64,000 nt of DNA from Nocardioides daphniae (GTDB lineage Bacteria; Actinomycetota; Actinomycetes; Propionibacteriales; Nocardioidaceae). Shown here one piece after another: positions 1,659 to 58,253 of the stretch; positions within the stretch are counted from its first letter, which is position 1, and each line of letters opens with the position of its first letter. The notes beneath the pieces are model-generated. The model had not been told where the DNA came from. It made no database searches and saw only the letters and a list, made by a program, of their open reading frames with translations. The stretch spans positions 1,054,001 through 1,118,000 of the forward strand of contig NZ_CP038462.1 in NCBI RefSeq assembly GCF_004777465.1. The letters run 5' to 3'. The position numbers and the translations under genes were made by a program.

Positions 1659-1664
1659 ACCCTA
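1659..1664 (-). promoter_or_regulatory. -10 box of orn, leaderless spacing
   Basis: TAGGGT on the minus strand ends 8 nt before the GTG of orn. It is one of a family of TANNNT boxes placed directly before start codons in this window. Confidence 0.5.
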
Positions 1665-1743
1665 CTAGTGATCGCCGACATCCGAGGGGTCGTGGGCCTC
1701 GACCGTCGGCACGGGGCTGCCGCTCGCGCTGTGGGCGCTGACC

Positions 1744-1749
1744 TAGGGT
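1744..1749 (+). promoter_or_regulatory. -10 box of the MauE gene, leaderless spacing
   Basis: TAGGGT ends 6 nt before the GTG at 1756. This favours 1756 over the GTG at 1750 as the translation start of the MauE protein. Confidence 0.5.
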
Positions 1750-1755
1750 GTGGAC

Positions 1756-2310
1756 GTGCAGCCTCCACGCGTCTGGCAGGGAGCGTTTCCCTGGATCGGT
1801 CTCGTCGCCCGTCTGGCGACCGGCGGCGTGTGGCTCGTGGCCGGGGCGATCAAGCTGCCCGACCCCTACGAGAGCATCAGCGCCGTGCGGGCGTACGAGG
1901 TGCTCCCCGAGGCGCTCGTCCCCGCGGTCGGCTACCTGCTGCCGGTGGTGGAGGTCGCGATCGGTCTGCTGCTGATCCTGGGCCTGCTGACACGCACCAG
2001 CAGCGTGGCCTCGGCGATCCTCTTCGCCGTCTTCGTCGCCGGCATCGCGTCGGTCTGGGTCCGTGGGATCGAGATCGACTGCGGCTGCTTCGGCGGGGGA
2101 GGCGAGAAGGAGGGCGCCTCGGCGGAGTACCCGCTGGAGATCGCCCGCGACCTGGGGCTGATGCTGCTCTCGGTGTGGCTGGTGTGGCGTCCGCGTACGC
2201 GGTGGGCGCTGGACAACATGCTCTTCCGCTCGTCCGAGCGGGGACCTGAAAGGAACGACGATGGCGAAGAACCCGCCGAAGAAGAACGCGCCGGGCACCC
2301 GGTCCGATGA
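1756..2310 (+). CDS. MauE/DoxX-type redox membrane protein
   Basis: This 184-aa protein has four hydrophobic segments and the paired cysteines DCGCFGG between segments three and four, a layout typical of the MauE/DoxX redox-associated membrane family. Such proteins are thought to pass electrons to or from periplasmic thioredoxin-fold proteins. The next gene encodes exactly such a protein and starts inside this one (50-nt overlap). A joint role in exported-protein disulfide formation, in place of DsbB or VKOR, is my inference. The last ~25 residues are acidic and poorly conserved, as expected where the reading frame overlaps its neighbour. Confidence 0.8.
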
Positions 2311-3127
2311 GCGGGCCGCGACCGCGGCCAAGCGGGAGGCGCGTCGCGAGAAGGCCGCGCGCCAGGCCGCTGCCGCACTGGCCGAGAAGAAGGCGCGCCA
2401 GCGCAAGGAGCGCCTGATGGTCGGCGGCATCGTCGCCGCCGTCGTGCTGCTCGTGGCCGGCGTCGTGACCTGGCAGGTCATGCGCAACTCCGGCCCCGTC
2501 GCCGTCCCGGACAACGCCACCGACAAGTACGGCGTCTCGATGGGTGAGGCCGACGCCGGCGCCCAGATCGAGATCTTCGCCGACTTCCTGTGCCCCGCCT
2601 GCAAGAGCTTCGAGGCCGCGGCGGAGGCGCCGCTGACGCAGCTGGCCGAGGCCGGCGCTGCCCACGTCACCTACAACCCTGTCGTCATCCTCGACCAGTT
2701 CGGCGACTACTCCGAGCGCGCCGCCAACGCCTTCGCCGTCGTGCTCGACACCGCCGGCGCCGAGGTGGCCCTGGAGTTCCAGGCCGCCCTCTTCGCCGAG
2801 CAGCCCTCGGAGTCGGGCTCCAAGCCCGACGACGACTGGCTCATCGACCTCGCCGTGGAGTCGGGCGCCAAGGAGTCCGAGATCCGCGACGACATCGAGG
2901 GCATGAAGTTCGAGCGCTGGGTCAAGGAGGCGACGCAGGAGTCGGAGCGCCGCGGCCTGCGTGGCACGCCGACCATCTTCATCAACGGCAACCAGGTGGA
3001 GCCCCAGGACGCTCTCAACCAGATCCAGCAGCTCGCCCAGGCGGCCGGACCGGCCCAGCCCGAGGGTGACGCCGGCGCGGGTGAGGGTGACGCAGGTGAG
3101 GGTGACGCGGAGAAGGACGCCAGCTGA
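2261..3127 (+). CDS. Membrane-anchored DsbA-family thiol-disulfide oxidoreductase
   Basis: This 288-aa protein has a Lys/Arg/Ala-rich cytoplasmic N-terminus, one membrane anchor at about residues 49-70, then an extracytoplasmic thioredoxin-fold domain. The redox motif CPAC sits in [11 protein letters not shown] and the cis-Pro loop is GTPTIFING. The tail is a Gly/Asp/Glu/Ala repeat of low complexity. The fold and motif match actinobacterial Thioredoxin_4 proteins that oxidise secreted proteins. An AAGGAA ribosome site precedes the ATG. It overlaps the MauE gene upstream and shares TGATG with the gene downstream, so the three are translationally coupled. Confidence 0.9.
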
Positions 3128-3381: not shown

Positions 3382-3465
3382 CAGACTTCCGCTGACCACG
3401 GAACCGGGTCTGGCCACCCGGTCGGCGCCTTTCGAGGGTCGCTGGCCGGGTGGCACACTCGGCGG

Positions 3466-4533: not shown

Positions 4534-4538
4534 CGCCC

Positions 4539-5132: not shown

Positions 5133-5178
5133 GCCGACTCGTCTGCTGCGCCTCCGCGGCGCCCTGTTGAGCATCTCT

Positions 5179-14227: not shown

Positions 14228-14862
14228 TCAGTCGCAGTTGTCGCACAGCCCGGTCGCGGGCAGCACCATGAAGCAGCTCGGGCAGAGCTTCTCGGCCGGG
14301 GGAGCGGGCTTCGCGGGGGGCTTCGCGGCCGCCGCCTTGCGCGGCGCGCGCGGGGTCGTCGTACGCGGCGTGCTCGCCCGCGGGGTGGACGTACGCGGTG
14401 CGCGTGGCGCCCGCTCGCCGGCCACGGGCGCCGGGGGAGGGCGGGCTCGCCGCCGTCGGCGGGCAGGTCGGCGCCGTGGCGCCGGTAGCACTCGAGGCGC
14501 TCGGTGGCCGCGTGCATCTCCGGGCTGGTGACGACATCACCGCGCACGGCGTTGACGGTGTCGGCGTACCACTCGGGCATCCGTCCGTCGGGGCCGATCA
14601 CCAAGGAGCCGAGCAGCGGCTCGGCGCGGCGGTGGCAGTCCTTCGCGACGCGGAAGAGGATGTCGCCGATCCACAGGCCCGGCGCCTGCCGGTTGCGGAT
14701 GCGCGTGCGCTCCTGCACCTGGCGCGCCAGCTCGGGCACCGTGATGACGGCGTGGTAGTCGCCGGCCACGTCGGCCAGGACGTGGCGGGCGGCGAGCGCG
14801 AAGGTCTCCCTGGCGTTCTCCAGGTCGATGGTGCGGGCCTCGATCCAGGGAGTGTCGTTCAC
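14228..14862 (-). CDS. Uncharacterised protein with C-terminal zinc ribbon (one frameshift)
   Basis: About 212 aa when repaired. The N-terminal ~130 residues form a helical domain I do not recognise, with RIRNRQAPGLWIGDILFRVA as its best-defined stretch. The second part is a Pro/Ala/Thr/Lys-rich linker, and the C-terminus is a single zinc ribbon, CPSCFMVLPATGLCDNCD. The two halves are in different frames. The break is in the GGGGG run at about 14430-14436. A TAGGAT box 8 nt before the GTG suggests a leaderless mRNA. Function unknown. Confidence 0.65.
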
Positions 14863-17475: not shown

Positions 17476-18924
17476 TCAGCCACGCAGCCGGCCCATCCAC
17501 TCCTCGACGGCCTCGGGGGTGCGGGGCAGGGCCTCGGAGAGGTTCCGCGAGCCGTCGGCGGTGACGAGGATGTCGTCCTCGATCCGGATGCCGATGCCGC
17601 GCAGCTCCTCGGGCACGAGCAGGTCGTCGTGCTGGAAGTAGAGGCCGGGCTCGACGGTGAGGACCATGCCCTCGGCCAGGTCGCCCTTCGCGTACGCCTC
17701 GGGCGCGGCCTGCGCGCAGTCGTGGACGTCCATGCCGAGCATGTGGGAGGTGCCGTGCAGCGTCCAGCGGGCGTACACCTTGGAGGTGGGGTCGAGCGCC
17801 TCCTCTGCGCTGACCGGCAGCAGGCCCATGTCGGCCAGGCCGCGCGCGAGCACCCGCATCGCCGCGTCGTGCGGGGCGGAGAAGGGCGCGCCGGGGCGGA
17901 CCGCGTCGATGCCGGCGACCTGTGCGTCCAGCACCAGCTGGTAGAGCTCGCGCTGGACGGGGGAGTACGTCCCGGTCACCGGGATCGTGCGGGTGACGTC
18001 GGCGGTGTAGAGGTTCGTGTTCTCCACGCCCATGTCGAGCAGGAGCAGGTCGCCGGGCGTGACCGGGCCGGTGTTCTCGATCCAGTGCAGCGTGGTCGCG
18101 TGCGAGCCGCCGCCGACGATCGAGTCGTAGCCGACGTCGTTGCCCATGGCGCGGGCGCGACGGAAGAAGGTGCCCTCGATCCACCGCTCGCCGAACTCCA
18201 GCACCCGGTCCCACTCGCGGACGGAGTCCTCGAAGCCGAGCGTGGTGATGTCGCAGGCCTCCTGCAGCTGCGCGACCTCCCAGTCGTCCTTGACCAGGCG
18301 CAGCTCCGACAGCACGCGGCTCAGCTCGGCGTCGGCGCCCTCGTCACCGCTGACCGCACGGTCCACCTCGGCCGAGACGCCACGGTGGACGCGGGTCTTG
18401 GTCTGGTCGGAGAGGCGCTGGGCCAGCTCGTCGACGTGGCGCACCTCGAGGTCGAGCGACGCCGCCATCTCCTCGAGCGAGGGACGCTTGCCGGCCCACA
18501 GTGCGCCGTACTGGCGGTCGCGGAAGAACTCGTCGGTCTCGCGCGACGAGCGGGGACGGGCGTACAGCACCTGGCTGCCGTCGGGCTCGACGACGAGCAC
18601 GGCGTCGGTGGTCTGGTTGCCGGTCAGCCACGTGTGCGCGGTGTCCGGGCGGAAGCGGTAGTCGGTGTCGTTGGAGCGCACCTTGAAGGTGCCGGCCGGG
18701 ACCACCAGCCGCTCACCCGGGAAGAGGCCCGCCAGGTGCTCGCGCCGGCGCGCGGCGTGCGGCGCGACGGGGTGCCTGGAGACGTCGGAGGCCAGGTCGG
18801 CCCACCCGGTGCGCATGAAGGCGGCGTACGCCTCGGGCACGGCGGGGTCGTGCGACTGGGTGCCGGGAGCCTGCGCGTCGGGCTGCTCGCTCAGCGGGGC
18901 CTGGGGTTCCGTCTGCTCGCTCAC
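17476..18924 (-). CDS. pepP: Xaa-Pro aminopeptidase-type M24 metallopeptidase
   Basis: 482 aa. The N-terminal aminopeptidase P domain (GLFPGERLVVPAG, DYRFRPDTAHTWLTG) is followed by a pita-bread catalytic domain with all five metal ligands: LLLDMG, YTADVTR, GTSHMLG, VEPGLYF and GIRIEDD. It removes N-terminal residues before proline. The first ~30 residues are a Gln/Pro-rich extension. The GTG start lies 7 nt after TAGAGT, a leaderless signature. The gene is divergent from prsW, with only 70 bp between starts. Confidence 0.92.
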   Translation of the reverse strand: MSEQTEPQAPLSEQPDAQAPGTQSHDPAVPEAYAAFMRTGWADLASDVSRHPVAPHAARRREHLAGLFPGERLVVPAGTFKVRSNDTDYRFRPDTAHTWLTGNQTTDAVLVVEPDGSQVLYARPRSSRETDEFFRDRQYGALWAGKRPSLEEMAASLDLEVRHVDELAQRLSDQTKTRVHRGVSAEVDRAVSGDEGADAELSRVLSELRLVKDDWEVAQLQEACDITTLGFEDSVREWDRVLEFGERWIEGTFFRRARAMGNDVGYDSIVGGGSHATTLHWIENTGPVTPGDLLLLDMGVENTNLYTADVTRTIPVTGTYSPVQRELYQLVLDAQVAGIDAVRPGAPFSAPHDAAMRVLARGLADMGLLPVSAEEALDPTSKVYARWTLHGTSHMLGMDVHDCAQAAPEAYAKGDLAEGMVLTVEPGLYFQHDDLLVPEELRGIGIRIEDDILVTADGSRNLSEALPRTPEAVEEWMGRLRG

Positions 18925-18931
18925 GCAGGTC

Positions 18932-18937
18932 ACTCTA
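18932..18937 (-). promoter_or_regulatory. -10 box of the M24 peptidase gene
   Basis: TAGAGT on the minus strand ends 7 nt before the GTG start. Confidence 0.5.
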
Positions 18938-18982
18938 CGCCCGCAGGCGCAGTCGCCGGTGTCCGCAGGAACGCGGCCCCGA

Positions 18983-18988
18983 TAGGGT
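18983..18988 (+). promoter_or_regulatory. -10 box of prsW
   Basis: TAGGGT ends 6 nt before the ATG. With the peptidase box on the other strand it forms a compact divergent leaderless promoter pair. Confidence 0.5.
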
Positions 18989-18994
18989 TCCCCC

Positions 18995-20116
18995 ATGGTC
19001 CGACACCACCGCGAGAGCGTGGTCTTCACGCTCGTGGTCACCCTGCTGGCCTTCCTGGGCGCCGCGCTGATGCTCGTGATCATCGCGCTCTCGGGAGCCC
19101 CGGCCACGTTGGGCCTGGCTGCAGTGATGGCCTTCCTGCCGGTCGGGCCGCTGGTCGCCTGCTTCCTTTGGCTGGACCGCTACGAGCCTGAGCCGCGGGT
19201 CCTGCTCGGCTCCGGCCTGGCCTGGGGCGCCTTCGTCGCCACCGCTGCGGCCATCGTGCTGCAGGGCGTCGGCGGGATCTTCGCCGGCTTCGACGAGGTG
19301 CAGGCCATCGCGGTGGTCGCCCCGATCGTCGAGGAGGCGACCAAGGGCGCCTTCCTGGTGCTGCTGCTGTGGTGGCGCCGCGCCGAGCTCGACGGGATGC
19401 TCGACGGGATCGTCTACGCCGGCATGGTCGGCGTCGGCTTCGCGTTCGTCGAGAACATCCTCTACCTGGCCGCGGCCTACAACGGCACCGACGGCGTCGG
19501 CCCCGGCGGCACCGAGGCCCTGACGGCGACCTTCGTGGTCCGCTGCCTCGTCAGCCCGTTCGCCCACCCGCTCTTCACCGCCTTCACCGGCATCGGTGTC
19601 GGGCTGGCCGTCAACAGCCGCAGCAACGGCGGCCGATGGCTCGCGCTCTCCACCGGCTACGCGCTGGCCGTGCTGTCGCACATGCTCTGGAACAGCGCCG
19701 CCGTGGGCCTCACCGGCAACTTCATCCTCGTCTACGTGACCCTGATGGCCCCGCTCTTCCTGGGCCTCGTCGGCTTCGCCGTCTGGCTGCGCCGGGCCGA
19801 GCGACGGATGCTGCACGCGGCGCTCGACGACGCTGCCCGTCGCGGCCTGCTGCCCGCCACCGACGTCGCCTGGCTGGTCGACCTGTCGGCCCGCCGCGCC
19901 GCCCGCCGCTTCGCCCAGCAGCAGGGTGGTGACACGGAGGAGGAAGCGATGGAGGAGTACCAGCAGGCAGCCGTTGAGCTCGGCTTCCTCCACCACAGGT
20001 ATCTTCGAGGCACACCGCCACCGGACTTCGCGACCCGTGGCCAGACCTTCGTGGCCCGGCTCAACGCCGTACGTCCCTACATCTCCTTCCCCGGACAGGT
20101 GGTCCCCACGCGATGA
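18995..20116 (+). CDS. prsW: PrsW-family intramembrane metalloprotease
   Basis: 373 aa with about eight helices. The PrsW/CPBP-like motifs are PIVEEATKG, VGFAFVENILY, the HPLFTAFTG helix and SHMLWN, which supply the Glu and His residues of the active site. B. subtilis PrsW cuts an anti-sigma factor. The target here is unknown. After the last helix comes a cytoplasmic domain of ~110 residues. The stop overlaps the ATG of a dynamin-like GTPase gene (ATGA), so the two are translationally coupled, a suggestive partnership at the membrane. Confidence 0.9.
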   Translation: MVRHHRESVVFTLVVTLLAFLGAALMLVIIALSGAPATLGLAAVMAFLPVGPLVACFLWLDRYEPEPRVLLGSGLAWGAFVATAAAIVLQGVGGIFAGFDEVQAIAVVAPIVEEATKGAFLVLLLWWRRAELDGMLDGIVYAGMVGVGFAFVENILYLAAAYNGTDGVGPGGTEALTATFVVRCLVSPFAHPLFTAFTGIGVGLAVNSRSNGGRWLALSTGYALAVLSHMLWNSAAVGLTGNFILVYVTLMAPLFLGLVGFAVWLRRAERRMLHAALDDAARRGLLPATDVAWLVDLSARRAARRFAQQQGGDTEEEAMEEYQQAAVELGFLHHRYLRGTPPPDFATRGQTFVARLNAVRPYISFPGQVVPTR

Positions 20117-24494: not shown

Positions 24495-24500
24495 TAGGCT
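24495..24500 (+). promoter_or_regulatory. -10 box of ettA
   Basis: TAGGCT ends 8 nt before the ATG of ettA. Confidence 0.45.
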
Positions 24501-24508: not shown

Positions 24509-26191
<1,683 letters not shown>

Positions 26192-26263: not shown

Positions 26264-26761
26264 TCAGCGCTGGCGGCGGAACTCCATCGCCGGGTGCGAC
26301 CCGACGAGGTGGTCGGAGACGGTGTTGAAGACGCGGCCGACGGCGGCGAAGTCCTCGTCGCTCACCAGGTCGACCAGGTTGTCGCGCACACCTCGTACGT
26401 GCACGTGCGCGGCCTGCTCGAGCAGCTCCATGCCCTGCGGGGTGAGCGCCGCCACGACGCCACGACCGTCGTCGGGGGAGGCGCGACGAGCGACGTAGCC
26501 GGCCTTCTCCATCCGGTCGATGGTGTGGGTGACGCGGGAGCGGCTGTGCGCCAGGGCGTCGGCCAAGTGGGCCATCCGCATCGCGTGGTCCTCACGCTCG
26601 GAGAGCCGGACGAGGATCTCGTACTCGGTGAGCGAGATGTCGTGGGCGCGACGCAGGTCGTCGTCCAGCCGGCCGAGCAGCAGTGCGTGGCCCAGCAGCA
26701 GGGCCCGCCACGAGCGCTGCTGCCCCTCGTCGAGCCACCGGGTCTCCCCCTGATCAGTCAT
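26264..26761 (-). CDS. MarR-family transcriptional regulator
   Basis: 165 aa winged-helix protein. The DNA-binding core is MRMAHLADALAHSRSRVTHTIDRM, followed by the wing ASPDDGRGVVAALT. Helices at both ends form the dimer interface. Divergent from the thioesterase gene, it probably controls itself and that gene. A TAAGGT box lies 7 nt before the ATG. The ligand is unknown. Confidence 0.92.
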   Translation of the reverse strand: MTDQGETRWLDEGQQRSWRALLLGHALLLGRLDDDLRRAHDISLTEYEILVRLSEREDHAMRMAHLADALAHSRSRVTHTIDRMEKAGYVARRASPDDGRGVVAALTPQGMELLEQAAHVHVRGVRDNLVDLVSDEDFAAVGRVFNTVSDHLVGSHPAMEFRRQR

Positions 26762-26768: not shown

Positions 26769-26774
26769 ACCTTA
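26769..26774 (-). promoter_or_regulatory. -10 box of the marR-type gene
   Basis: TAAGGT on the minus strand ends 7 nt before the ATG. Confidence 0.5.
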
Positions 26775-29278: not shown

Positions 29279-29284
29279 TATCCT
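29279..29284 (+). promoter_or_regulatory. -10 box of small membrane protein gene
   Basis: TATCCT ends 7 nt before the GTG at 29292. Confidence 0.45.
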
Positions 29285-32798: not shown

Positions 32799-32804
32799 TA
32801 GCAT
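32799..32804 (+). promoter_or_regulatory. -10 box of chrA
   Basis: TAGCAT ends 7 nt before the GTG start of chrA. No ribosome site is visible, which fits a leaderless message. Confidence 0.5.
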
Positions 32805-32811: not shown

Positions 32812-33962
32812 GTGGAACGCACCCGACCCCGCGAGCTCGCACTCCTCTTCCTCCGCCTGGGTGTCGTCGCCTTCGGCGGGCCCGCGGTGCACATCGCGTT
32901 GATGCGCGACGAGCTGGTGCGTCGTCGGGGCTGGCTCGACGACCAGCGCTTCCTCGACCTGATGGCCGCCACCAACCTGGTGCCCGGCCCGAACTCCACC
33001 GAGCTGGCGATCCACCTGGGCCACGAGCGCGGGGGCTGGCGCGGGTTCTGGGCGGCCGGGCTCGCCTTCATCCTGCCCGCCGCGTTGCTCGTCACCGGCC
33101 TGGCCTGGGTCTACGTCGAGTGGGGGAGCACCCCCGTGCTCGACGGGGTGCTGGCGGGGGTCGTGCCGGTGGTGGTGGCGATCGTCGTCTGGTCGGCCGT
33201 CGGCCTGGGGCCGACCGCCCTGCACAGTCCGTGGCTGCGCGTGCTGGCCGCCGTGGCGCTGGTGACCTACCTGCTCGGTGCCCCGGAGCTCGCCGTGCTC
33301 CTCGCGGGGGGAGTGCTGGGCGTCCTGGTGGGCTGGGGGAGCCGCCGCCGTCGTACGCAGCGTGCCTCGGGCCCGCAGGCCGTCGTGGCCGCCGCCGTGC
33401 TCTGGGCCGCCGACCGCACCGGCGGCGCGGTCGACCTGGAACGCCTCGCCACGCTGGGCTGGACGATGCTGCGGATCGGGGCGGTGCTCTACGGCGGCGG
33501 CTACGTGCTGCTGGCCTTCCTCGACGGTGAGTACGTCGAGCGCCTCGGCTGGCTCACCCGGACCGAGCTGCTCGACGCGGTGGCGGTGGGTCAGATGACC
33601 CCGGTCCGCTCTTCACCTCGGCGACCTTCGTCGGCTTCCTGGTTGCCGGCCTGCCGGGCGCGCTGGTCGCGACCGTGGCGATCTTCGCGCCCTCCTTCCT
33701 CTTCGTCGCGCTGCTGACCCGGGTGACGAGCCGGTTGCGCGCCCGCTGGTGGACGGCCGCCTTCCTCGACGGGGTGAACGCCACGGGACTGGCGCTGATG
33801 GTCGGCGTGGCCTGGCTGCTGGGCCGCGAGGCGTTCACCGACGTGGTGGGCCTGGGGCTCGCGCTGGTGACGCTGCTGGCGCTGTGGCGCACCCGCCTCA
33901 ACAGCGCCTGGCTCGTGCTGGGCGGGGCGGTCGTGGGCGGTCTGATTCACTGGGTGGCGTGA
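32812..33962 (+). CDS. chrA: Chromate transporter, two-domain CHR family (one frameshift)
   Basis: About 383 aa when repaired, with two homologous halves of ~6 helices each. The first carries FGGPAVHIALMRDELV and NLVPGPNSTELAIHLG. The second carries LYGGGYVLLAF and GQMTPGPLFTSATFVGF. The frame breaks at the GG at 33603-33604, within that last motif, where one G is missing. CHR proteins export chromate, often as sulfate-like anions. The substrate is not proved by sequence. It overlaps the reductase gene by GTGA. Confidence 0.88.
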
Positions 33963-35937: not shown

Positions 35938-36669
35938 TCAGGTGCTCGTGGCCGCCGTGGTGGTGGAGACCATCACGGCGGTGGAGATCGCTGCCTGCGA
36001 GGCAGCGACGGCGTCGCGCACCGCCTTCGCCGCCCAGTCGCCCTCGGTGATCGCCTTGGCCCGCCTCTTCACCTCGCGCGGGCTGAGCTCACCGCGCTGT
36101 GAGGTCAGGTCGCCCGGCGCGAGCACCTTGTAGGCCTGGTCGACGGCGGCGAGGAGGGCCACCAGGGCGGCGGTGCGGGGCGTCGGCATGAGGCCGATGA
36201 CCAGGCAGTCGCGCAGGGACGCACGCACCTGCTGCTCGTGCTGGACGTCCACCGCCGGCCAGGTCGTGCTCGGGAAGAGCCCGAGGATCTTCGTCTCCCG
36301 CCGCTCGAGGATGCCCCGGGCGACGAGCCTGTCCTGCAGCTCCTTCCGCACGCCCCTGCCGAGCCGGTCCACGAGGCCCTGGGCCGTGCGCGGCTTCTCG
36401 GCGACGACCTCCCAGGCCCGGGCCAGCAGCGGGTCGGGTGCTGCGCCCCCGGCCGGCGGGTGGACGGCGTGGACCTTGGCCGTGTGCCACATCCCGCGCT
36501 TCTCCTCGACCTCGACCGCGCCGTCGAGGGCGAGCTCGGCCAGGAGCGCGCCGCCGAAGAGCGGTTGGGCGTAGGAGGCGGCGGCGAGGCGCCCCTTCTC
36601 GTCGTCCATCAGCAGGAGGAGCAGGTCCTCCGCGATCAGCGTCCTCGACTCGGCGTGCGGCTGGCTCAT
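35938..36669 (-). CDS. GPP34/GOLPH3-family phosphoprotein
   Basis: 243 aa. GPP34 fold features are the N-terminal LIAEDLLLLLMDDEKGR, LFGGALLAELALDGAV, ILERRETKILGLFPSTTWP and RTAALVALLAAVDQAYKVL. The eukaryotic relatives bind phosphatidylinositol-4-phosphate at the Golgi. The bacterial role is unknown. The ATG lies 7 nt after TAGGTT, and the gene is divergent from metG over just 56 bp. Confidence 0.9.
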   Translation of the reverse strand: MSQPHAESRTLIAEDLLLLLMDDEKGRLAAASYAQPLFGGALLAELALDGAVEVEEKRGMWHTAKVHAVHPPAGGAAPDPLLARAWEVVAEKPRTAQGLVDRLGRGVRKELQDRLVARGILERRETKILGLFPSTTWPAVDVQHEQQVRASLRDCLVIGLMPTPRTAALVALLAAVDQAYKVLAPGDLTSQRGELSPREVKRRAKAITEGDWAAKAVRDAVAASQAAISTAVMVSTTTAATST

Positions 36670-36676
36670 GCCGACG

Positions 36677-36682
36677 AACCTA
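36677..36682 (-). promoter_or_regulatory. -10 box of the GPP34 gene
   Basis: TAGGTT on the minus strand ends 7 nt before the ATG. Confidence 0.5.
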
Positions 36683-36713
36683 GCCGGGAGGCACGGCCGC
36701 GCACGAGCGTCAC

Positions 36714-36719
36714 TAGGAT
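36714..36719 (+). promoter_or_regulatory. -10 box of metG
   Basis: TAGGAT ends 6 nt before the ATG of metG. The two divergent -10 boxes are only 31 bp apart. Confidence 0.5.
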
Positions 36720-36725
36720 TCCCCC

Positions 36726-38519
36726 ATGAGCAAAGTCCTCTCCGCTGTCGCCTGGCCGTACGCGAACGGCCCGCGCCACATCGGCCACGTGGCCGGTTTC
36801 GGTGTGCCCTCCGACGTCTTCAGTCGGTACATGCGCATGGGGGCGGGCCACGACGTGCTCATGGTCTCCGGCTCCGACGAGCACGGCACGCCGATCCTGA
36901 TCGCGGCCGACGAGGCGGGGATGACCCCGCAGGAGCTGGCGGACAAGAACCACCGCCTCATCGTCGAGGACCTCGTCGGCCTGGGGCTCTCGTACGACCT
37001 CTACACGCGCACGACGACCGGCAACCACCACGCGGTGGTGCAGGAGATGTTCCGCGGGGTGCACGCCAACGGCTACTTCGTCGAGGAGACCACCTTCGGG
37101 GCGATCTCCCCGTCGACCGGTCGTACGCTGCCCGACCGCTACATCGAGGGCACCTGCCCGATCTGCAAGACCCCCGGTGCCCGTGGTGACCAGTGCGACG
37201 CCTGCGGCAACCAGCTCGACCCCCACGACCTGATCGACCCGGTCAGCCGCATCAACGGCGAGACCCCGCAGTTCATCGAGACCCAGCACTTCTTCCTCGA
37301 CCTCCCGGCCCTGGCCGAGGCGCTGGGGGAGTGGCTCGACGAGCGCGACGCGTCGGGCACCTGGCGCCCCAACGTCATCAAGTTCTCGATGAACATCCTC
37401 AAGGAGATCCGTCCCCGGGCGATGACGCGCGACATCGACTGGGGCATCGCGGTGCCGCTCGACGGCTGGCGCGACAACCCGACCAAGAAGCTGTACGTCT
37501 GGTTCGATGCCGTGATCGGCTACCTGTCGGCCTCGATCGAGTGGGCGCGCCGCTCGGGCAACCCCGAGGCGTGGCGCGAGTGGTGGAACGACCCGCAGGC
37601 CCTGTCGTACTACTTCATGGGCAAGGACAACATCACCTTCCACAGCCAGATCTGGCCGGCCGAGATGCTCGCCTACAACGGCAAGGGTGCCAAGGGTGGC
37701 GAGGCCCACGAGCTCGGTGAGCTCAACCTGCCGACCGAGGTCGTCTCCTCGGAGTTCCTCACCATGGAGGGGCGCAAGTTCTCCTCCTCCAAGAAGGTCG
37801 TCATCTACGTCGCCGACCTGCTGAGCCGCTACCAGGCCGACGCCTTCCGCTACTTCGTCGCCGCCGCCGGCCCGGAGAACCAGGACTCCGACTTCTCGTG
37901 GGCGGAGTTCGTGCAGCGCACCAACTCCGAGCTGGTCGCCGGCTGGGGCAACCTGGTCAGCCGCACGGCGACGCTGATCGCCAAGAACTTCGGTCAGGTA
38001 CCGGCGCCCGCCGGGCTGACCGCCGAGGACGAGGCCGTCCTGGCCACGACGCTGGCCGCCTTCGACACCGTGGGCGACCTGATCAGCCGCAACCGGATGC
38101 GCAACGCGATCAACGAGGCGATGCGCGCCGTGGCCGACGTCAACAAGTACGTCACCGACGCCGAGCCGTGGAAGATCAAGGAGGACCCCGAGCGCCTCGG
38201 GACCGTCCTGTGGGTGATGGCCCAGGCCGTCCAGGACCTCAACACCCTGCTCAGCCCCTTCCTGCCGTTCACGGCCAACCAGATCGACACGATCCTGGGA
38301 GGCGCCGGCGACCTGCAGCCGCTGCCGCGCATCGAGGAGGTCACCGACCTCGACCTCGAGGGCCGCGCCTACCCGGTGATCACCGGCGACTACGCGGGCG
38401 TGCGCGCCTGGGGCCGCCACGACGTCGTGGTCGGCACCCCGATCGAGAAGCCGACCCCGGTCTTCACCAAGCTCGACCCGACGCTGGTCGATGAGGAGCT
38501 CGCCCGACTGGGCATCTGA
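36726..38519 (+). CDS. metG: Methionyl-tRNA synthetase
   Basis: 597 aa, class I synthetase. The HIGH box appears in [12 protein letters not shown], and the KMSKS-equivalent is FSSSKK in [13 protein letters not shown] zinc knuckle lies in between ([18 protein letters not shown]), and the anticodon-binding helical domain occupies the last ~200 residues. There is no C-terminal dimerisation/tRNA-binding extension, so it is the shorter monomeric form. Essential for translation. Confidence 0.97.
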
Positions 38520-44599: not shown

Positions 44600-44605
44600 T
44601 AGTGT
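44600..44605 (+). promoter_or_regulatory. -10 box of clpP1
   Basis: TAGTGT ends 7 nt before the GTG at 44613, so this GTG is probably the start of both mRNA and protein. Confidence 0.5.
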
Positions 44606-44612: not shown

Positions 44613-45260
44613 GTGAACCTGAACTCCAGCGCTTCCCCGACGTCGCCCCAGATGAACGGCGGCGGCTCCTACGGGCTCGACGACCACATCTACCAGCGCC
44701 TGCTCAAGGAGCGGATCGTCTTCCTCGGCTCCGAGGTGCGAGACGCCAACGCGAACGCGATCTGCGCGGCGCTCCTCCTGCTCTCCGCGGAGGACCCCGA
44801 GGCGGACATCTTCCTCCACATCAACAGCCCGGGCGGCTCGGTGGACGCCGGCATGGCGATCTACGACACGATGAACTACATCCCCAACGACGTGGTCACC
44901 GTGGGCATGGGTCTGGCCGCGTCGATGGGCCAGTTCCTCCTCTGCGCCGGCACCAAGGGCAAGCGCTACGCCCTGCCGCACGCGCGGATCATGATGCACC
45001 AGCCCTCCTCGGGCATGGGCGGCTCCGCCTCCGACATCAAGATCCAGGCGCAGCAGTCCCTGCACATCAAGAAGGTGCTCCTCGACCTGATCGCCGAGCA
45101 CACCGGCCAGTCGGTCGAGCAGGTCATCGCCGACGCCGACCGCGACCGTTGGTTCACCGCTGAGCAGGCCAAGGAGTACGGCCTGGTCGACAAGGTGATC
45201 GCCAGTGCCCGCGACGCCGCCGACGAGGGTCGCCCCGCCCACACGAAGAAGGACGACTGA
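44613..45260 (+). CDS. clpP1: ATP-dependent Clp protease proteolytic subunit 1
   Basis: 215 aa. The catalytic triad is Ser in GLAASMGQF, His in ARIMMHQP and Asp in ADRDRWFT. The N-terminal ~20 residues (Asn/Ser/Pro-rich) are probably a cleaved propeptide. In actinobacteria ClpP1 and ClpP2 form a mixed tetradecamer that is active only with ClpX or ClpC1. An ATG at 44577 would add 12 residues but overlaps the promoter. It lies 3 bp from clpP2. Confidence 0.95.
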   Translation: MNLNSSASPTSPQMNGGGSYGLDDHIYQRLLKERIVFLGSEVRDANANAICAALLLLSAEDPEADIFLHINSPGGSVDAGMAIYDTMNYIPNDVVTVGMGLAASMGQFLLCAGTKGKRYALPHARIMMHQPSSGMGGSASDIKIQAQQSLHIKKVLLDLIAEHTGQSVEQVIADADRDRWFTAEQAKEYGLVDKVIASARDAADEGRPAHTKKDD

Positions 45261-48334: not shown

Positions 48335-50939
48335 TCACTCCGCGGCAGGAGCGACCTCGGCCTCGACGGTGAGCTCGGTGGCCTCCTCGTCGACGGTGAA
48401 GACCAGGTCGCCGGTGATCTTGCCGGCCTGGCGCAGGTCGGTCTCGGCGGCACGGGCCCCCTCGACCAGCTTCGCGGGACCGGAGACCTCCACCCGGGTC
48501 AGCTCGTGGCGCATCGAGACCTTCGCCTTCGACTTGGCGCCACGGATGCCACCCAGCGCCGCGGAGACACCGGCCAGGGCGCCCGGGTCGCTCGCCGCGG
48601 CGCTGCCCAGGTCGTTGGGCTCGGGCCAGGCGTGGGTGTGGATCGACCCCTCGCGCCACCACGACCAGACCTCTTCGGTCACGTAGGGCAGGAAGGGCGC
48701 GAGCAGGCGCAGCTGGACGTGCAGGGCGACCGCCAGGGCAGCGCGCGCCGACTCCGTGGCCAGGCCGCCGTCCTCGGCGTACGCGCGCTCCTTCACCAGC
48801 TCGACGTAGTCGTCGCAGAACTCCCAGAAGAAGCGCTCGGCGACCTCGAGGGCCGTGGTGTAGTCGTACGCCTCGAAGGCCTCGGTTGCGGTGCGGATCG
48901 TCTCGGCGAGGCGACCCATGAGGGCGGTGTCGACGGGCTCGTAGACGGCGACGGGGCTCGGGTTCGTGGCACCGACGTAGCTGAGCACGAACTTCGAGAC
49001 GTTGAGGACCTTCATCGCCAGGCGACGGCCGACCTTCATCTGGCTCTCGTCGAAGGGCGAGTCCAGGCCGGGCGGGCCATCGCGGCGCGCCAGCGGACGG
49101 CGTCGGCACCGAACTTGTCGAGGATCTCGGTGGGGACGACGTTGCCCTTCGACTTCGACATCTTCTTGCGGTCGGGGTCGACCACGAAGCCCGACAGCAT
49201 GGCGTGCGACCACGGCACGACACCGTTCTCGTGGTGGGCACGGACCACGCGGGAGAAGAGCCAGGTGCGGATGATGTCGTGGGCCTGCGTGCACAGGTCC
49301 ATCGGGAAGACCCGCTCGAAGAGGTCCTGGTCGATCTCCCACTTGCCCGCGATGTGCGGGGTGAGCGACGAGGTCGCCCAGGTGTCCATCACGTCGGGGT
49401 CACCGATGAAGCCGCCGGCCTTGCCGCGCTGCTCCTCCGAGTAGCCCTCGGGGGCGTCGGTGGAGGGGTCGACGGGCAGCTGCGCCTCGGTGGGCAGCAG
49501 CGGGTGGTCGTAGTCGGGCTCACCCTCGGCGTCCAGTGCGTACCAGACCGGGAAGGGGATGCCGAAGAAGCGCTGACGGCTCACCAGCCAGTCGCCGTTG
49601 AGGCCACCGACCCAGTTGTCGTAGCGGTGCTTCATGTGCTCGGGCACCCAGGTGATCTTCTCGCCCTCGCCGACCAGCTCGTCGCGCAGGTCGGCGTCGC
49701 GGCCGCCGTTGCGGACGTACCACTGGCGCGTGGAGACGATCTCGAGCGGCTTGTCGCCCTTCTCGTAGAAGTTGGCCATGCGCTCGGTCGGCTTGGGCTC
49801 GCCGTCGAGGTCGCCGGTCTCGCGGAGCTTGGCGACCATCGCCTCGCGCGCGGAGAAGACGGTCTTGCCGGCCAGGTCCTCGTACGCGGCAGCAGCCTGC
49901 TCGCTGGAGAGCCACTCGGGCGTCTCGCGGGTGAGGCGGCCGTCGCGACCGACGACGGTGCGCACCGGCAGCTGCAGCTCTCGCCACCACTGGACGTCGG
50001 TGAGGTCACCGAAGGTGCAGCACATCGCGATGCCGGCGCCCTTGTCGGGCTCGGCGGCGGGGTGGGCCAGGACCGGGATCTCGACCCCGAAGACGGGCGA
50101 GGTGACGGTGGTGCCGAAGAGCGCCTGGTAGCGCTCGTCGTCAGGGTGGGCGATCAGGGCGACGACCGACGGGATCAGCTCGGGACGGGTGGTCTCGATG
50201 TGGATCGGGCCGGCGGCGCCGTGGAAGGCCACGCGGTGGTAGGCGCCGGGGTAGGGGCGGGCCTCCAGCTCGGCCTGGGCGACCGCGGTCTGGAAGGTGA
50301 CGTCCCACAGGGTCGGGGCCTTCTGCAGGTATGCCTCGCCGCGGGCGAAGTTGCGCAGGAACGCGCGCTGGCTGACGGTCTGGGCGTCGTGACCGATCGT
50401 CGTGTATGGTGTTCCAGTCGACCGAGAGGCCGAGGCGGCGCCACAGCGACTCGAAGACCTGCTCGTCCTCCTCCACCAGCTGCTCGCAGAGCTCGATGAA
50501 GTTGGGGCGGCTGATCGCCACCTGCTTCTTCGGGTCGGGCTTCGCCGGCGGCGTGAAGTCGGCCGTACGGCAGGCTCGGGTCGCAGCGGACGCCGAAGTA
50601 GTTCTGCACCCGACGCTCGGTCGGCAGGCCGTTGTCGTCCCAGCCCATCGGGTAGAAGACCGACTTGCCGGTCATCCGCTGGTAGCGCGCAATGACGTCG
50701 GTGTGGGTGTAGGAGAAGACGTGGCCGACGTGCAGCGAGCCGGAGACGGTGGGCGGGGGAGTGTCGATCGAGTAGACGTTCTCCCGCGGCTGGGTGCGGT
50801 CGAAGGCGTAGGTGTCGTCAGCCTTCCACTGCGCGGCCCACTTCTCCTCAAGACCCTCCAGAGCCGGCTTGTCCGGTACGACGACGTCGCGCGGTGCGGG
50901 CGGCGTCGTGGACAGGTCGGGATGCTGGTTGTCAGTCAT
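48335..50939 (-). CDS. valS: Valyl-tRNA synthetase (three frameshifts)
   Basis: About 868 aa when repaired. The HIGH box is in [13 protein letters not shown], the KMSKS in [11 protein letters not shown], the editing domain in [12 protein letters not shown], and the C-terminal anticodon domain and coiled-coil arm are present. Breaks lie near 50571 (SLPYG to ADFTPP), near 50405 (VDWNT to TTIGHDAQT) and near 49083 (AMARP to [10 protein letters not shown]). An essential gene cannot be broken three times in a living cell, so these are sequence errors. TAGACT lies 6 nt before the ATG, inside the end of the upstream gene. Confidence 0.93.
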
Positions 50940-50945: not shown

Positions 50946-50951
50946 AGTCTA
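50946..50951 (-). promoter_or_regulatory. -10 box of valS
   Basis: TAGACT on the minus strand ends 6 nt before the ATG and overlaps the stop codon of the preceding gene, so valS has its own promoter. Confidence 0.5.
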
Positions 50952-54145: not shown

Positions 54146-54151
54146 TAGAAT
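54146..54151 (+). promoter_or_regulatory. -10 box of folC
   Basis: TAGAAT ends 9 nt before the ATG of folC. Confidence 0.4.
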
Positions 54152-54160
54152 CGGCGAGCG

Positions 54161-55556
54161 ATGAGCCACACTCCTGACGCCCCTGAGGGCCCCCGTTTCG
54201 CGCAGACCTTCGACGAGGTCAGCGACGCGCTCCTGTCCCGATGGCCCGAGACCCGGCTCGAGCCCTCGCTCGACCGGATCCAGGCCTTCACCGAGCTGCT
54301 CGGGGACCCCCAGCGCGCCTACCAGGTGGTGCACCTCACCGGCACCAACGGCAAGACCTCCACCTCGCGGATGATCGACACGCTGCTGCGTGCCCTGGAC
54401 CTGCGCACAGGACGGTTCACCTCCCCGCACGTCGAGAAGATGAGCGAGCGGATCTGCCTCGACGGTGAGCCGCTCAGCGACGAGGCCTTCGTCGACGCCT
54501 TCAACGACGTCGCGCCCTACACGCACCTGGTCGACTCCAGCCAGGAGCACCCGCTCTCCTTCTTCGAGACCGTCGTCGGCATGGCGTACGCAGCCTTCGC
54601 CGACGCCCCGGTCGACGTCGCGGTGGTCGAGGTCGGCATGGGCGGCTCGTGGGACGCCACCAACGTCGTCGACGCCCAGGTCGCCGTGGTCCTGCCGATC
54701 GCCCTCGACCACGCCCAGTACCTGGGGGAGTCGCCCGTCGACATCGCCCGGGAGAAGGCCGGCATCATCAAGGAGGGCAGCTACGCCGTGCTGGCGCAGC
54801 AGACCCCCGAGGTCGCCGCCGTCCTCCTCGAGCGCGCTGCCGCGGTCGGCGCCACCATCGTCCGCGAGGGCATGGAGTTTCGGCGTCATCTCCCGCGTCC
54901 CGGCCGTCGGTGGCCAGATGGTCTCGATCCAGGGTCTGCGCGCCCGCTTCGACGACCTCTTCCTCCCGCTGCACGGCGCCCACCAGGCGCAGAACGCCGC
55001 GGTCGCCCTCGCCTCGGTGGAGGCGCTGCTCGGCGAGGCCCCACTGGACGAGGAGCTGGTGCGGGCCGCCTTCGCCGAGTTCACCTCGCCCGGTCGCCTC
55101 GAGGTCGTGCGCCACTCGCCCACGATCGTGCTCGACGCCGCCCACAACCCGCACGGCGCGGAGGCCACGGCGGCCGCGCTGGAGGACTCCTTCGCCTTCG
55201 ACCCGGTGGTCGGCGTCATCGGCGTGATGGGCGACAAGGACTACGAGGGCGTGCTCGCGGCCTTCGAGCCGCACATGGACCACCTCGTGGTGACCCAGAA
55301 CTCGACCCCGCGTGCGATGAGCGCCGAGGCGCTGGGCCAGGTGGCGCGCGGCGTCTTCGGTGAGGACCGGGTCACCGTCGTGCCCGACCTGGCCGACGCC
55401 ATCGACCGGGCCGCCGCGCTGGCCGAGGCCGGCCAGGCGTTCGGTGACGGCATCGGTGCCGGCGCCGTCCTGGTGACCGGCTCCGTGGTCACCGTGGGGG
55501 AGGCCCGCGCGATGATCCGCCCGGTGGGCCGCGACCGCAACGCTGGAGGCAGCTGA
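54161..55556 (+). CDS. folC: Folylpolyglutamate synthase/dihydrofolate synthase (one frameshift)
   Basis: About 464 aa when repaired, Mur-ligase-like fold. ATP loop LTGTNGKTSTSRM, SPHVEKMSERI, the metal/ATP region VVEVGMGGSWDATN, EKAGIIKEG and the C-domain LDAAHNPHGAEA are all present. It adds glutamate to folates. The frame break is an extra T in the TTT at 54878-54880, between EGMEF and GVISRVPA. It shares TGATG with the DUF4233 gene, as in other actinobacteria. Confidence 0.93.
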
Positions 55557-56037: not shown

Positions 56038-56056
56038 GGCTTCCCGGCGCCTCGGT

Positions 56057-57403
56057 TCAGCCCAGCGCGGCGACCAGCACCTCCAGCGCTCGGTCGAGCT
56101 CGTCGTCGTCCGGGCCGCCGAAGCCGACCACCAGCCCGCTGAGCCCTGCGCTGCGGCAGTAGGTGGAGAGCAGGTTGACCCGGAAGCCCGCCTCCTCCGC
56201 CGCGCGCTGCGCCCGGGCCGCCCGCTCCTCCTCGAGCAACCACGTCGAGTACATGCCGGCGACCGGGCCGGCGAGCTCGGCGTAGGGCGAGAGGGCGGCG
56301 ACGACCCGCGGTGCGCGCTCGGCGTACGCACGTCTCGCCGCGCGTACGACGGCGTCGACGTGGCCGTCGCGCAGCATCACCGCGAAGGCCGACTGCACCG
56401 CCCACGGCGGGGTGTCGTGGGTCAGCGCACGGAAGGCGTCGACGGTGGGGCGCAGGTGGTCGGGGAGGACCGCCCAGCCCAGCCGCAGCGACGGCATCAC
56501 CGACTTCGAGGCGGTCCCGAGCAACGCCACCTGCCCACGCGCCATGGCCGCCAGCGCCGGCACGGGCGCCACGTCGTAACGGAACTCCGAGTCGTAGTCG
56601 TCCTCGATCACGAGGACCCCGGCGCGCTCGGCCTCGGCCAGCAGGCGGACCCGCTCGTCGGCGCCCATCACGTGGCCCAACGGGTGCTGGTGGGCCGGGG
56701 TCACGTAGGCCGCAGCGAGGCCGGCGAGGTCTCCCACCGGTCCGGAGGCCGGGAGGTCGACGACCTGCCGCCCGCTGGCCAGGACCACCGCGACCGCGGC
56801 CCGGTAGCCCGGGTCCTCGACGCCGACGGGCCGCTGGGGCAGTCCGGTCAGCGCGTGGCGCAGGCCCTGCGTGGTGCCGCTGGTGACCAGCACGTCGTCG
56901 GGGTCGACGTCGAGGCCACGGGTGCGGGCGATCCGCTCGGCCAGCGCCGTCCTCAGCTCCGGCAGGCCCCGCGGGTCGTCGTAGCCGCGCGGTGGGGTGG
57001 CGTCGGTGACGCTGCGCCAGGCCCGGCGCCAGGCGGCCGTCGTGGTGCGCGGCACGGGGCTGGGGCGCCACGGGGTGCCGGCGTCCATCGGCACCAGCGG
57101 GCGCGCCGGGGTCGCGCGGGGGCGTGGGGCGACCTGCCGCAGGGCGACCTCCGGCCCGGCGGCCACCCAGGTGCCCGAGCCGGTGCGGCCCTCCACCCAG
57201 CCCTCGGCGCGCAGCTGGTCCCATGCGGTGTCGACGGTGGCCCGGGAGACGCCCAGGTCGGTGGCCAGCGCGCGGGTGCTGGGCAGGCGGTCGCCCACCG
57301 TGAGCGTGCCGTCGAGGGCGAGACGTCGTACGCCGTCGGCGAGCTGCACGCTGAGCGGCGTACGGGAGTCGCGGTCGAGCCGCACCGGCAGGGGAGTGGT
57401 CAT
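56057..57403 (-). CDS. MocR/PdxR-type GntR regulator with aminotransferase-like domain
   Basis: 448 aa. The N-terminal winged helix (GVRRLALDGTLTVGDRLPSTRALATDLGVSRATV, first half shown by position ~25-58) joins a fold-type-I PLP domain with GYDDPRGLPELR, IEDDYDSEFRYD and the PLP-Lys loop GTASKSVMPSLRLGW. Such regulators sense PLP or amines and often control vitamin B6 genes. It is divergent from a PNPOx-like gene with three operator-like repeats in between, which supports that role. Confidence 0.92.
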   Translation of the reverse strand: MTTPLPVRLDRDSRTPLSVQLADGVRRLALDGTLTVGDRLPSTRALATDLGVSRATVDTAWDQLRAEGWVEGRTGSGTWVAAGPEVALRQVAPRPRATPARPLVPMDAGTPWRPSPVPRTTTAAWRRAWRSVTDATPPRGYDDPRGLPELRTALAERIARTRGLDVDPDDVLVTSGTTQGLRHALTGLPQRPVGVEDPGYRAAVAVVLASGRQVVDLPASGPVGDLAGLAAAYVTPAHQHPLGHVMGADERVRLLAEAERAGVLVIEDDYDSEFRYDVAPVPALAAMARGQVALLGTASKSVMPSLRLGWAVLPDHLRPTVDAFRALTHDTPPWAVQSAFAVMLRDGHVDAVVRAARRAYAERAPRVVAALSPYAELAGPVAGMYSTWLLEEERAARAQRAAEEAGFRVNLLSTYCRSAGLSGLVVGFGGPDDDELDRALEVLVAALG

Positions 57404-57430
57404 CGCGGGGCCTCACGCAGGTCAGACCGA

Positions 57431-57478
57431 AGTGGCCCGACGAGAAGTGTCTGGATTGGCCCGTTCTCTCGGGCCACT
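57431..57478. promoter_or_regulatory. Triple repeat operator between mocR and PPOX genes
   Basis: AGTGGCCCGA (57431), ATTGGCCCGT (57455) and the inverted copy TCGGGCCACT (57469) lie in the 94-bp divergent intergenic region. Two copies run in the same direction 24 bp apart and the third faces them, a layout expected for a MocR dimer. Confidence 0.6.
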
Positions 57479-57497
57479 GAGCGTGGACGATGGTCTC

Positions 57498-58250
57498 ATG
57501 AGCACGAGCGCCCCCGCCCCCCAGGCCGCGTCCCGACTGTCCGACCTCCCGCTGGAGCCCACGGACCGCACCACCGTTACCAGGGGCCGCAACCGGGTGG
57601 TCGCCGACCGCACGAAGCTGCTGGCGCTGCTGGCCGACGGGCTGGTGTGCCACGTCGGCGTCGACGTCGGCGACCACCCGGTCGTGCTGCCCTGCGCCTA
57701 CGCGGTCGACGTCGACGGCCCCGACGCGGGCGGCACCCTCTACCTCCACGGCTCGGTGGCGGCGGGCTGGATCCGCCGCCTGCTGGCCGACCCTGCCCAC
57801 GCGACCATCTGCGTCACCGTCACCGAGCTCGACGGGCTGGTCACCGCCCGCTCGCCCTTCCACCACTCGATGAACTACCGCTCGGCCGTGGTCGTGGGTC
57901 GCGCCCGGGAGGTGACCGACACCGAGGAGCGTCGCCACGCGCTCGACCTGGTCGTCGACCACATGGTCCCGGGCCGCTCGGCCACGCTGCGGCCCAGCAC
58001 CCGCAAGGAACTGGCCGCGACCGCCGTCCTGGCGGTCCCGCTCGCCGAGGCGTCGATGAAGGAGCGCGCCGAGGGGCCGGTCGACGACGAGGCCGACGTG
58101 GCGTCCGGAGTGTGGGGCGGCCACATCCCGCTGCGCCGGGTCGCCGTCGACCCGGTGCCCGCGCCCGACGCGGTGGGGGAGGTGCCCGAGGACGTCCGCG
58201 CCCGGGCCGCGGAGTTGGCCGGTCGTGCCCTCCGGGCGGCGGCTCGTTAG
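57498..58250 (+). CDS. Pyridoxamine-5'-phosphate-oxidase-like flavin-binding protein
   Basis: 250 aa split-barrel FMN-binding fold: RNRVVADRTKLLALLADGLVCHVG, GTLYLHGSVAAGWIRRL, HSMNYRSAVVVGRAREV. It resembles the PNPOx-like subgroup that includes MSMEG-type flavin or F420 proteins rather than classical PdxH. The substrate is unknown, but the divergent MocR regulator points to B6 metabolism. It ends 9 bp before ndk. Confidence 0.82.
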   Translation: MSTSAPAPQAASRLSDLPLEPTDRTTVTRGRNRVVADRTKLLALLADGLVCHVGVDVGDHPVVLPCAYAVDVDGPDAGGTLYLHGSVAAGWIRRLLADPAHATICVTVTELDGLVTARSPFHHSMNYRSAVVVGRAREVTDTEERRHALDLVVDHMVPGRSATLRPSTRKELAATAVLAVPLAEASMKERAEGPVDDEADVASGVWGGHIPLRRVAVDPVPAPDAVGEVPEDVRARAAELAGRALRAAAR

Positions 58251-58253
58251 GCT
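58248..58253 (+). promoter_or_regulatory. -10 box of ndk
   Basis: TAGGCT ends 6 nt before the ATG and overlaps the stop codon of the upstream gene. Confidence 0.5.

What the first reader, a model, noticed from the sequence alone, without database searches (positions are those of the whole stretch)
1659..58253. Repeated leaderless-promoter signature at about fifteen genes
A TANNNT hexamer (mostly TAGGNT) ends 6-9 nt before the start codon of orn, MauE, the zinc-ribbon gene, the M24 peptidase, prsW, ettA, marR, the 29292 gene, chrA, GPP34, metG, the LURP-like gene, clpP1, valS, folC and ndk. With a -10 to +1 distance of 6-8, transcription would start at or next to the start codon. Several of these lack a ribosome-binding site. 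Leaderless mRNAs are known to be common in actinobacteria; the regular signature here also helps fix start codons (1756, 44613, 18924, 32812).
Basis: partly seen in the sequence, partly recalled or inferred. Interest (0 to 1): 0.7.

Follow-up and report, generated by a model that had tools for sequence, protein, structure and literature searches.

The report
Leaderless-gene promoters, locked at metG/ettA
In this Nocardioides-like actinobacterium about one sampled gene in eight carries a TANNNT motif 6-8 bases before its start codon, so its messenger RNA likely begins at the start codon itself: a known habit of actinobacteria, but at two translation genes (metG and ettA) the motif is kept in most of the relatives sampled across the class, which would point to a selected and still untested role.

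Summary
All 16 named genes have TANNNT ending 6-9 nt before a start codon (15 at 6-8, folC at 9). In an 864-kb sample of the same genome, with starts called from codon usage only, TANNNT piles up at spacers 6, 7 and 8 (56, 38 and 15 of 877 genes) against about 1.5 per offset in shuffles. These 109 genes almost lack a Shine-Dalgarno stretch of 5 nt or more (2 of 109 against 221 of 768), have C at -1, show no -35 box and are rare inside tight operons. Best reading: sigma-A-type -10 boxes that place +1 on the start codon, giving leaderless mRNA; no TSS data were available. 'Mostly TAGGNT' is overstated (8 of 16 here, 32 of 109 in the sample). The phenomenon in Actinobacteria is published. What my searches did not find in print is gene-level persistence: metG keeps the signature in 78 of 80 near relatives and 26 of 30 class-wide loci (17 of 17 families, including highly divergent metG lineages), ettA in 24 of 30; ndk (8 of 30), clpP1 (6 of 30) and infC (0 of 30) do not. 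A 'locked leaderless' role for MetRS and EttA is a testable lead, not shown.

The parts
1659..1664 (-). -10-like TAGGGT, 8 nt before orn GTG at 1650
   Evidence: RNase_T domain; TAGGGT/7 before the ortholog in G141
1744..1749 (+). -10-like TAGGGT, 6 nt before MauE GTG at 1756
   Evidence: MauE domain
   Evidence: no Pfam or NCBIfam match
18932..18937 (-). -10-like TAGAGT, 7 nt before M24 peptidase GTG at 18924; divergent from prsW
   Evidence: Peptidase_M24
18983..18988 (+). -10-like TAGGGT, 6 nt before prsW ATG at 18995
   Evidence: PrsW
24495..24500 (+). -10-like TAGGCT, 8 nt before ettA ATG at 24509
   Evidence: EttA by NCBIfam; kept in 24 of 30 class loci, own included
26769..26774 (-). 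-10-like TAAGGT, 7 nt before MarR-type regulator ATG at 26761
   Evidence: MarR-family matches below curated cut-off
29279..29284 (+). -10-like TATCCT, 7 nt before GTG at 29292 (125-aa product, no known family)
   Evidence: no match
32799..32804 (+). -10-like TAGCAT, 7 nt before chrA GTG at 32812
   Evidence: Chromate_transp
36677..36682 (-). -10-like TAGGTT, 7 nt before GPP34 ATG at 36669; divergent from metG
   Evidence: GPP34
36714..36719 (+). -10-like TAGGAT, 6 nt before metG ATG at 36726
   Evidence: kept in 78 of 80 near loci and 26 of 30 class loci
   Evidence: no Pfam or NCBIfam match
44600..44605 (+). -10-like TAGTGT, 7 nt before clpP1 GTG at 44613
   Evidence: CLP_protease; same TAGTGT/7 in same-genus G157
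50946..50951 (-). -10-like TAGACT, 6 nt before valS ATG at 50939
   Evidence: alt_ValS N-terminal match
54146..54151 (+). -10-like TAGAAT, 9 nt before folC ATG at 54161; offset at background rate, weakest case
   Evidence: FolC; spacer 9 not enriched
58248..58253 (+). -10-like TAGGCT, 6 nt before ndk ATG at 58260
   Evidence: NDK; 8 of 30 class loci, own included

Best explanation
The TANNNT hexamers that end 6-8 nt before the start codon of 109 of 877 sampled genes are likely the -10 boxes of housekeeping (sigma-A-type) promoters that would start transcription on the first base of the start codon, so the mRNAs are predicted to be leaderless. Shown from sequence: position, excess over shuffles, missing Shine-Dalgarno, C at -1, no -35 box, rarity in tight operons, and persistence in relatives. 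Inferred: that RNA polymerase starts there, and that ribosomes start on the 5'-terminal AUG or GUG, probably mainly as 70S particles. Which genes use it drifts with distance, but metG and ettA keep it in most sampled families of the class. I propose selection to make MetRS and EttA by the leaderless route, which by work mainly in E. coli responds to fMet-tRNA supply and continues when the Shine-Dalgarno route is blocked; this last step is a hypothesis.
For: Spacer peak at 6/7/8 = 56/38/15 of 877 against about 1.5 each in shuffles. 5-nt SD 2 of 109 against 221 of 768; C at -1 in 79/92/93% at spacers 6/7/8; purine at -1 in 13 of 109 against 374 of 768. Divergent genes 53 of 276 against operon-internal 8 of 245. 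Starts ATG 60, GTG 49, TTG 0 of 109. 77 of 109 hexamers lack AGG. Family level: 6 of 8 leaderless orthologs keep it in G141 against 5 of 50 others. metG: 78 of the 80 best of 594 loci, -1 = C in 72 of 75, strongest conservation in the hexamer and the bases just before it; class-wide 26 of 30 loci, 17 of 17 families. ettA 24 of 30 loci, 23 of them at spacer 6-8 and one at 9, own included, 15 of 18 families. Background 0.66% per start-like codon at spacers 5-9. In the class, 8 of the 9 other same-class genomes scanned exceed the reversed-pattern control. Literature.
Against: No TSS, 5'-RACE or ribosome profiling for this organism. No -35 box was found, whereas S. lividans leaderless promoters are reported with a TTGACn -35; M. 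tuberculosis lacks one. Codirectional genes with gaps of 80 nt or more, where a promoter could sit, have it in only 18 of 215. One same-class genome (G050) has fewer pattern hits than control, 440 against 524, and in the wider phylum scan of 119 genomes many are at control level. In G062 leaderless state is not significantly kept (3 of 10 against 13 of 98, p = 0.17). Controls for the metG/ettA claim are few: ndk, clpP1 and infC only; leuS and serS loci could not be fetched. infC, the initiation factor tested, is not leaderless (0 of 30), so 'initiation genes in general' is false.
Confidence: 0.92

Rival explanations
1. The hexamer is a Shine-Dalgarno variant: TAGGNT contains AGG at normal SD spacing, and the mRNAs have ordinary leaders.
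For: AGGA and GAGG in the other genes peak at spacings 6 and 7; TAGGAT of metG contains AGGA; a 4-nt SD match is present in 26 of 109.
Against: 77 of 109 hexamers have no AGG; TAHNNT alone is 43 against 5.1 at spacers 5-9; when AGG is present at spacer 6-8 it is flanked by T...T in 32 of 175 cases against 1 of 106 (spacer 0-4) and 4 of 246 (12-30); SD of at least 5 nt is nearly absent; divergent metG lineages also use TACCAT, TAAGAT or TACCGT.
Confidence: 0.04
2. The pile-up is a base-composition or start-calling artefact.
For: High-GC genome and home-made gene caller; some starts are wrong (it missed or shifted 5 of the 16 window genes).
Against: Starts were called without upstream signals, so errors dilute the peak; dinucleotide shuffles give 7.4 against 112; other ATG and GTG codons carry it at 0.3% and 0.1% against 12% and 10% at gene starts; reversed-pattern control 23 against 107.
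Confidence: 0.01
3. This rival concerns the metG/ettA part only: their persistence is a by-product of gene order or slow turnover, not selection for leaderless translation.
For: Leaderless genes are commoner at divergent pairs than in tight operons (53 of 276 against 8 of 245); GPP34-metG is such a pair here; orthologs are kept at family level in general (6 of 8).
Against: By a crude GC-frame test the upstream neighbour of metG is codirectional in 48, divergent in 28 and unreadable in 4 of 80 loci, and of ettA codirectional in 22, divergent in 1, unclear or too short in 7 of 30; ndk and clpP1 are mostly not leaderless at the same distance; metG homologs only 26-43% identical are also leaderless, in 14 of 18 loci.
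Confidence: 0.45

Closest known systems
TA-led (leaderless) genes of Actinobacteria, Zheng et al. 2011 (PMC3160421; passages read, some from the abstract)
   Same: TANNNT around 12 bp upstream, excess over dinucleotide shuffles, over 20% of genes in Actinobacteria, 18.9% in S. coelicolor
   Different: Here 12.4% with crude start calls in one Nocardioides-like genome; adds -1 C, operon position and gene-by-gene class comparison
Leaderless transcriptome of M. tuberculosis, Cortes et al. 2013 (PMC3898074; passages read)
   Same: TANNNT -10, no -35 motif, purine +1 preferred, about a quarter of genes with a primary TSS leaderless
   Different: Experimental TSS there, sequence only here
P. acnes leaderless mRNAs (PMC3848588; passages read), same order as Nocardioides by recalled taxonomy
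   Same: TAnnnT -10; AUG, GUG and UUG starts 68/29/3%
   Different: P. acnes shows a GnTTnG -35 at translation-machinery genes; no -35 motif seen here; no TTG in 109 here
Leaderless promoters of S. lividans TK24 (PMC8079986; passages read, some from the abstract)
   Same: TAnnnT in 93.4% of leaderless promoters; ATG and GTG starts
   Different: A -35 TTGACn is reported there, not found here

Membership tests
Actinobacterial leaderless (TA-led) genes | TANNNT with first T around 12 bp upstream of the start codon | tested here: met
   first T at 12-14 nt in 109 of 877
Actinobacterial leaderless (TA-led) genes | excess over dinucleotide-shuffled upstream regions | tested here: met
   112 against a mean of 7.4, maximum 13 in 40 shuffles, spacers 5-9
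Actinobacterial leaderless (TA-led) genes | no Shine-Dalgarno | tested here: met
   5-nt SD 2 of 109 against 221 of 768; 4-nt 26 of 109 against 419 of 768
Actinobacterial leaderless (TA-led) genes | TSS within 0-3 nt of start codon | not testable with these tools
   no RNA data; pyrimidine at -1 in 96 of 109 is indirect support
Actinobacterial leaderless (TA-led) genes | translation from the 5'-terminal codon | not testable with these tools
   needs reporter or ribosome profiling
Sigma-A promoter with -35 box (S. lividans leaderless type) | TTGACn 16-17 nt before the -10 | tested here: not met
   TTGAC 1 of 109 over spacers 14-23; no TGAC or TTG peak in 108
Shine-Dalgarno-led genes | purine-rich anti-SD match independent of flanking T...T | tested here: not met
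   77 of 109 without AGG; T...T flank specific to spacer 6-8

The most novel reading that the evidence does not exclude
Actinomycetes lock two proteins that act at the first step of translation, methionyl-tRNA synthetase (supplier of fMet-tRNA) and EttA (gate on the 70S initiation complex), onto leaderless mRNAs, in divergent metG lineages alike, so that their synthesis follows the 70S/fMet-tRNA route rather than the 30S/Shine-Dalgarno route: a restart kit that stays translatable when canonical initiation is throttled.
Probability: 0.22. Interest if true: 0.75.

Novelty: new member of a known kind. Interest (0 to 1): 0.4.

Why it matters
Leaderless genes in actinobacteria have been counted for over a decade, but why particular genes are leaderless is open. 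A pair of translation genes that keep the architecture in most families sampled, in divergent enzyme lineages, while ndk, clpP1 and infC do not, gives named genes on which to test whether leaderless expression is selected. Practically, the 6-8 nt spacer plus C at -1 helps to fix start codons in this genome.

Tried and rejected
A Shine-Dalgarno reading, a composition artefact, a -35 box, and gene order as the sole cause of metG persistence were tested. 'All initiation genes are leaderless' was rejected by infC, 0 of 30. GPP34 and the 38611 gene could not be compared in relatives: 61 and 63 of the 80 metG loci gave no hit and 18 and 14 only a partial one. The first metG class script ignored strand; its counts are replaced. 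The leuS and serS controls failed for lack of DNA; the valS comparison gave no answer twice. A peptide-motif look for infC found nothing and was replaced.

Dropped or limited rows: 892 genes were called, 877 had enough upstream sequence. Class comparisons used the 30 best-scoring loci returned from 60 genomes, so about half of the genomes, the more distant ones, are unseen; the ettA, ndk, clpP1 and infC sets include the own locus. In the 80-locus metG set the 2 misses are L103, where the match begins too near the locus end although TAGGCT is visible, and L110, with an N-terminal extension. In one search the 4 misses are L302, L306, L307 (start not located) and L320 (spacer 9). One ettA hit (L125) is at spacer 9; three ettA misses (L134, L138, L139) show TANNNT at spacer 10, not counted. 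clpP1 starts are uncertain, so 6 of 30 is a lower bound. The G141 and G062 stretches were spread along the contig, but some were placed so as to include known loci (ettA, ndk and clpP1 in G141; ettA and clpP1 in G062); without these genes the kept counts are 4 of 5 and 2 of 8 (from the rows).
Full report
WHAT WAS CLAIMED. A TANNNT hexamer ends 6-9 nt before the start codon of sixteen named genes, read as a leaderless-promoter signature.

IS IT THERE. Yes. All 16 are present; 15 sit at spacer 6-8 and folC at 9.

IS IT MORE THAN CHANCE. The window lies at 1,054,001-1,118,000 of a 3,558,816-base single contig. I took 40 further stretches of 20 kb spread over it, called 892 genes with starts chosen by codon usage alone, and counted TANNNT by offset for the 877 with enough upstream sequence. 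Offsets 6, 7 and 8 hold 56, 38 and 15; every other offset from 0 to 29 holds 0-3; shuffles give 0.6-1.9 per offset. At non-start ATG and GTG codons the 6-7 nt arrangement occurs in 0.3% and 0.1%, at gene starts in 12% and 10%. Of the 109 genes, 11 lie in the window, so the pattern is not local. TAGGNT is 32 of 109, not most. Offset 9, used for folC, is not enriched. In a scan of 119 genomes of the phylum the own genome shows 195 TANNNT-N6-ATG against 66 reversed; 8 of the 9 other same-class genomes also exceed control, G050 does not, and many other genomes of the phylum are at control level.

WHAT IT IS. Three properties separate leaderless promoters from ribosome-binding sites. First, SD matches of 5 nt or more are in 2 of 109 against 221 of 768 other genes, and of 4 nt or more in 26 of 109 against 419 of 768. 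Second, the base before the start codon is C in 79, 92 and 93% at spacers 6, 7 and 8, and a purine in 13 of 109 against 374 of 768: the pyrimidine-purine step expected (recalled) of a start site on the A or G of the start codon. Third, the T...T frame matters and AGG does not: 77 of 109 hexamers lack AGG, and AGG at the right offset is framed by T...T in 32 of 175 cases against 1 of 106 and 4 of 246 at other offsets. By context the share is 53 of 276 at divergent pairs, 28 of 125 with a codirectional gap of 25-80 nt, 18 of 215 with a gap of 80 nt or more, 8 of 245 under 25 nt, and 2 of 16 at stretch ends. The low share at long codirectional gaps was not explained. No -35 motif was found, as in M. 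tuberculosis and unlike S. lividans. TTG starts are 0 of 109 against 24 of 768 (p = 0.06).

COMPARISON WITH RELATIVES. The best metG loci are Nocardioides, up to 84% identity, so the organism is Nocardioides or close to it (inferred). Of 58 orthologs found in the sampled stretches of same-family G141, 6 of 8 leaderless genes are leaderless there too, against 5 of 50 others (p = 0.0003); of 108 in G062, another family of the class, 3 of 10 against 13 of 98 (p = 0.17). Some stretches were placed to include known loci; without those genes the kept counts are 4 of 5 and 2 of 8. So the state turns over with distance, as Zheng et al. reported.

Two genes behave differently. metG carries the signature in 78 of the 80 best of 594 loci, mostly as TAGGAT, all at spacer 6-8, with C at -1 in 72 of 75. 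Conservation is strongest in the hexamer (1.1-2.9 bits) and the bases just before it (up to 0.8), with only weak bumps elsewhere (up to 0.37 bits, at -28 and -27 from the hexamer). In 30 metG loci from across the class it is present in 26, in 17 of 17 families. These include 12 of 12 enzymes like ours and 14 of 18 that are only 26-43% identical to it, so divergent metG lineages share the architecture. ettA has it in 24 of 30 loci, own included, 23 at spacer 6-8 and one at 9, in 15 of 18 families. By the same kind of scan ndk has it in 8 of 30 loci (4 of 17 families; many of the rest show SD sequences, by eye), clpP1 in 6 of 30 (3 of 20 families, a lower bound), and infC in 0 of 30. By a crude GC-frame test the upstream neighbour of metG is codirectional in 48 of 80 loci, divergent in 28 and unreadable in 4, so compact divergent promoters alone do not explain it.

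MECHANISM. Committed reading: sigma-A-type -10 box, +1 on the start codon, leaderless mRNA. Position, composition and conservation are shown; transcription start and translation route are inferred. For metG and ettA I propose, as hypothesis only, selection for the leaderless route. A review (PMC9031893; passages read) says that leaderless translation starts mostly on 70S particles, is strongly enhanced by fMet-tRNA, is inhibited by high IF3 although low IF3 can help, and may be activated by (p)ppGpp, mainly from E. coli work; an abstract seen in a listing says it continues under kasugamycin (PMC4929434). MetRS makes the Met-tRNA precursor (recalled), and EttA is a translational throttle on 70S initiation complexes (EttA identity; its role recalled). 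The sign of any feedback is not predicted here.

WHAT IS KNOWN. Leaderless genes in Actinobacteria, their TANNNT signal and their importance for start prediction are published. In the open-licence library I saw nothing on class-wide persistence at metG or ettA in these listings: 'leaderless' with 'EttA' (5 papers), 'methionyl-tRNA synthetase' (9 listed of 10), conserved-ortholog terms (5 listed of 6), 'metG' with Streptomyces and TSS terms (none), 'Rv2477c' (1 paper, where 'leaderless' stands only in the reference list), aminoacyl-tRNA synthetase terms (6 listed of 7) and 'metS' (10 listed of 27). Most of these were judged by title and abstract only. Subscription journals and supplementary tables were not searched.

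VERDICT. The added lead is gene-specific persistence at metG and ettA, with few controls.

Noticed in passing
48335-50939 (-): valS (alt_ValS type) lies in several reading frames: profile 1-108, 218-607 and 617-825 match three different ORFs, and the GC-frame trace changes near 50.6, 50.45 and 49.1 kb. An essential gene broken this way suggests assembly indels.
   Followed up: partly
54161-55556 (+): folC matches its model only to about half, and the reading frame changes near 54.85 kb; the gene starting at 14862(-) seems to lose its frame near 14.5 kb. Frame errors may be frequent in this single-contig assembly.
   Followed up: partly
L323-L352 (infC loci, class-wide): infC has an ATC codon three codons before the conserved GAG/GAA of the N-terminus in all 30 loci, mostly behind a clear SD, by eye: an AUC start of IF3 looks conserved. 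The AUU start of E. coli infC is recalled, not looked up.
   Followed up: partly
18924-18995 and 36669-36726: Two divergent gene pairs (M24/prsW and GPP34/metG) have both starts leaderless-like, with only about 70 and 56 bp between start codons.
   Followed up: no
L293-L322: Very different metG lineages (26-43% identity to ours) occur in the class, even within one family: the same-family genome G141 has a metG only 28% identical to ours.
   Followed up: partly
own-genome sample: No TTG start among 109 leaderless-like genes against 24 of 768 others (p = 0.06).
   Followed up: no
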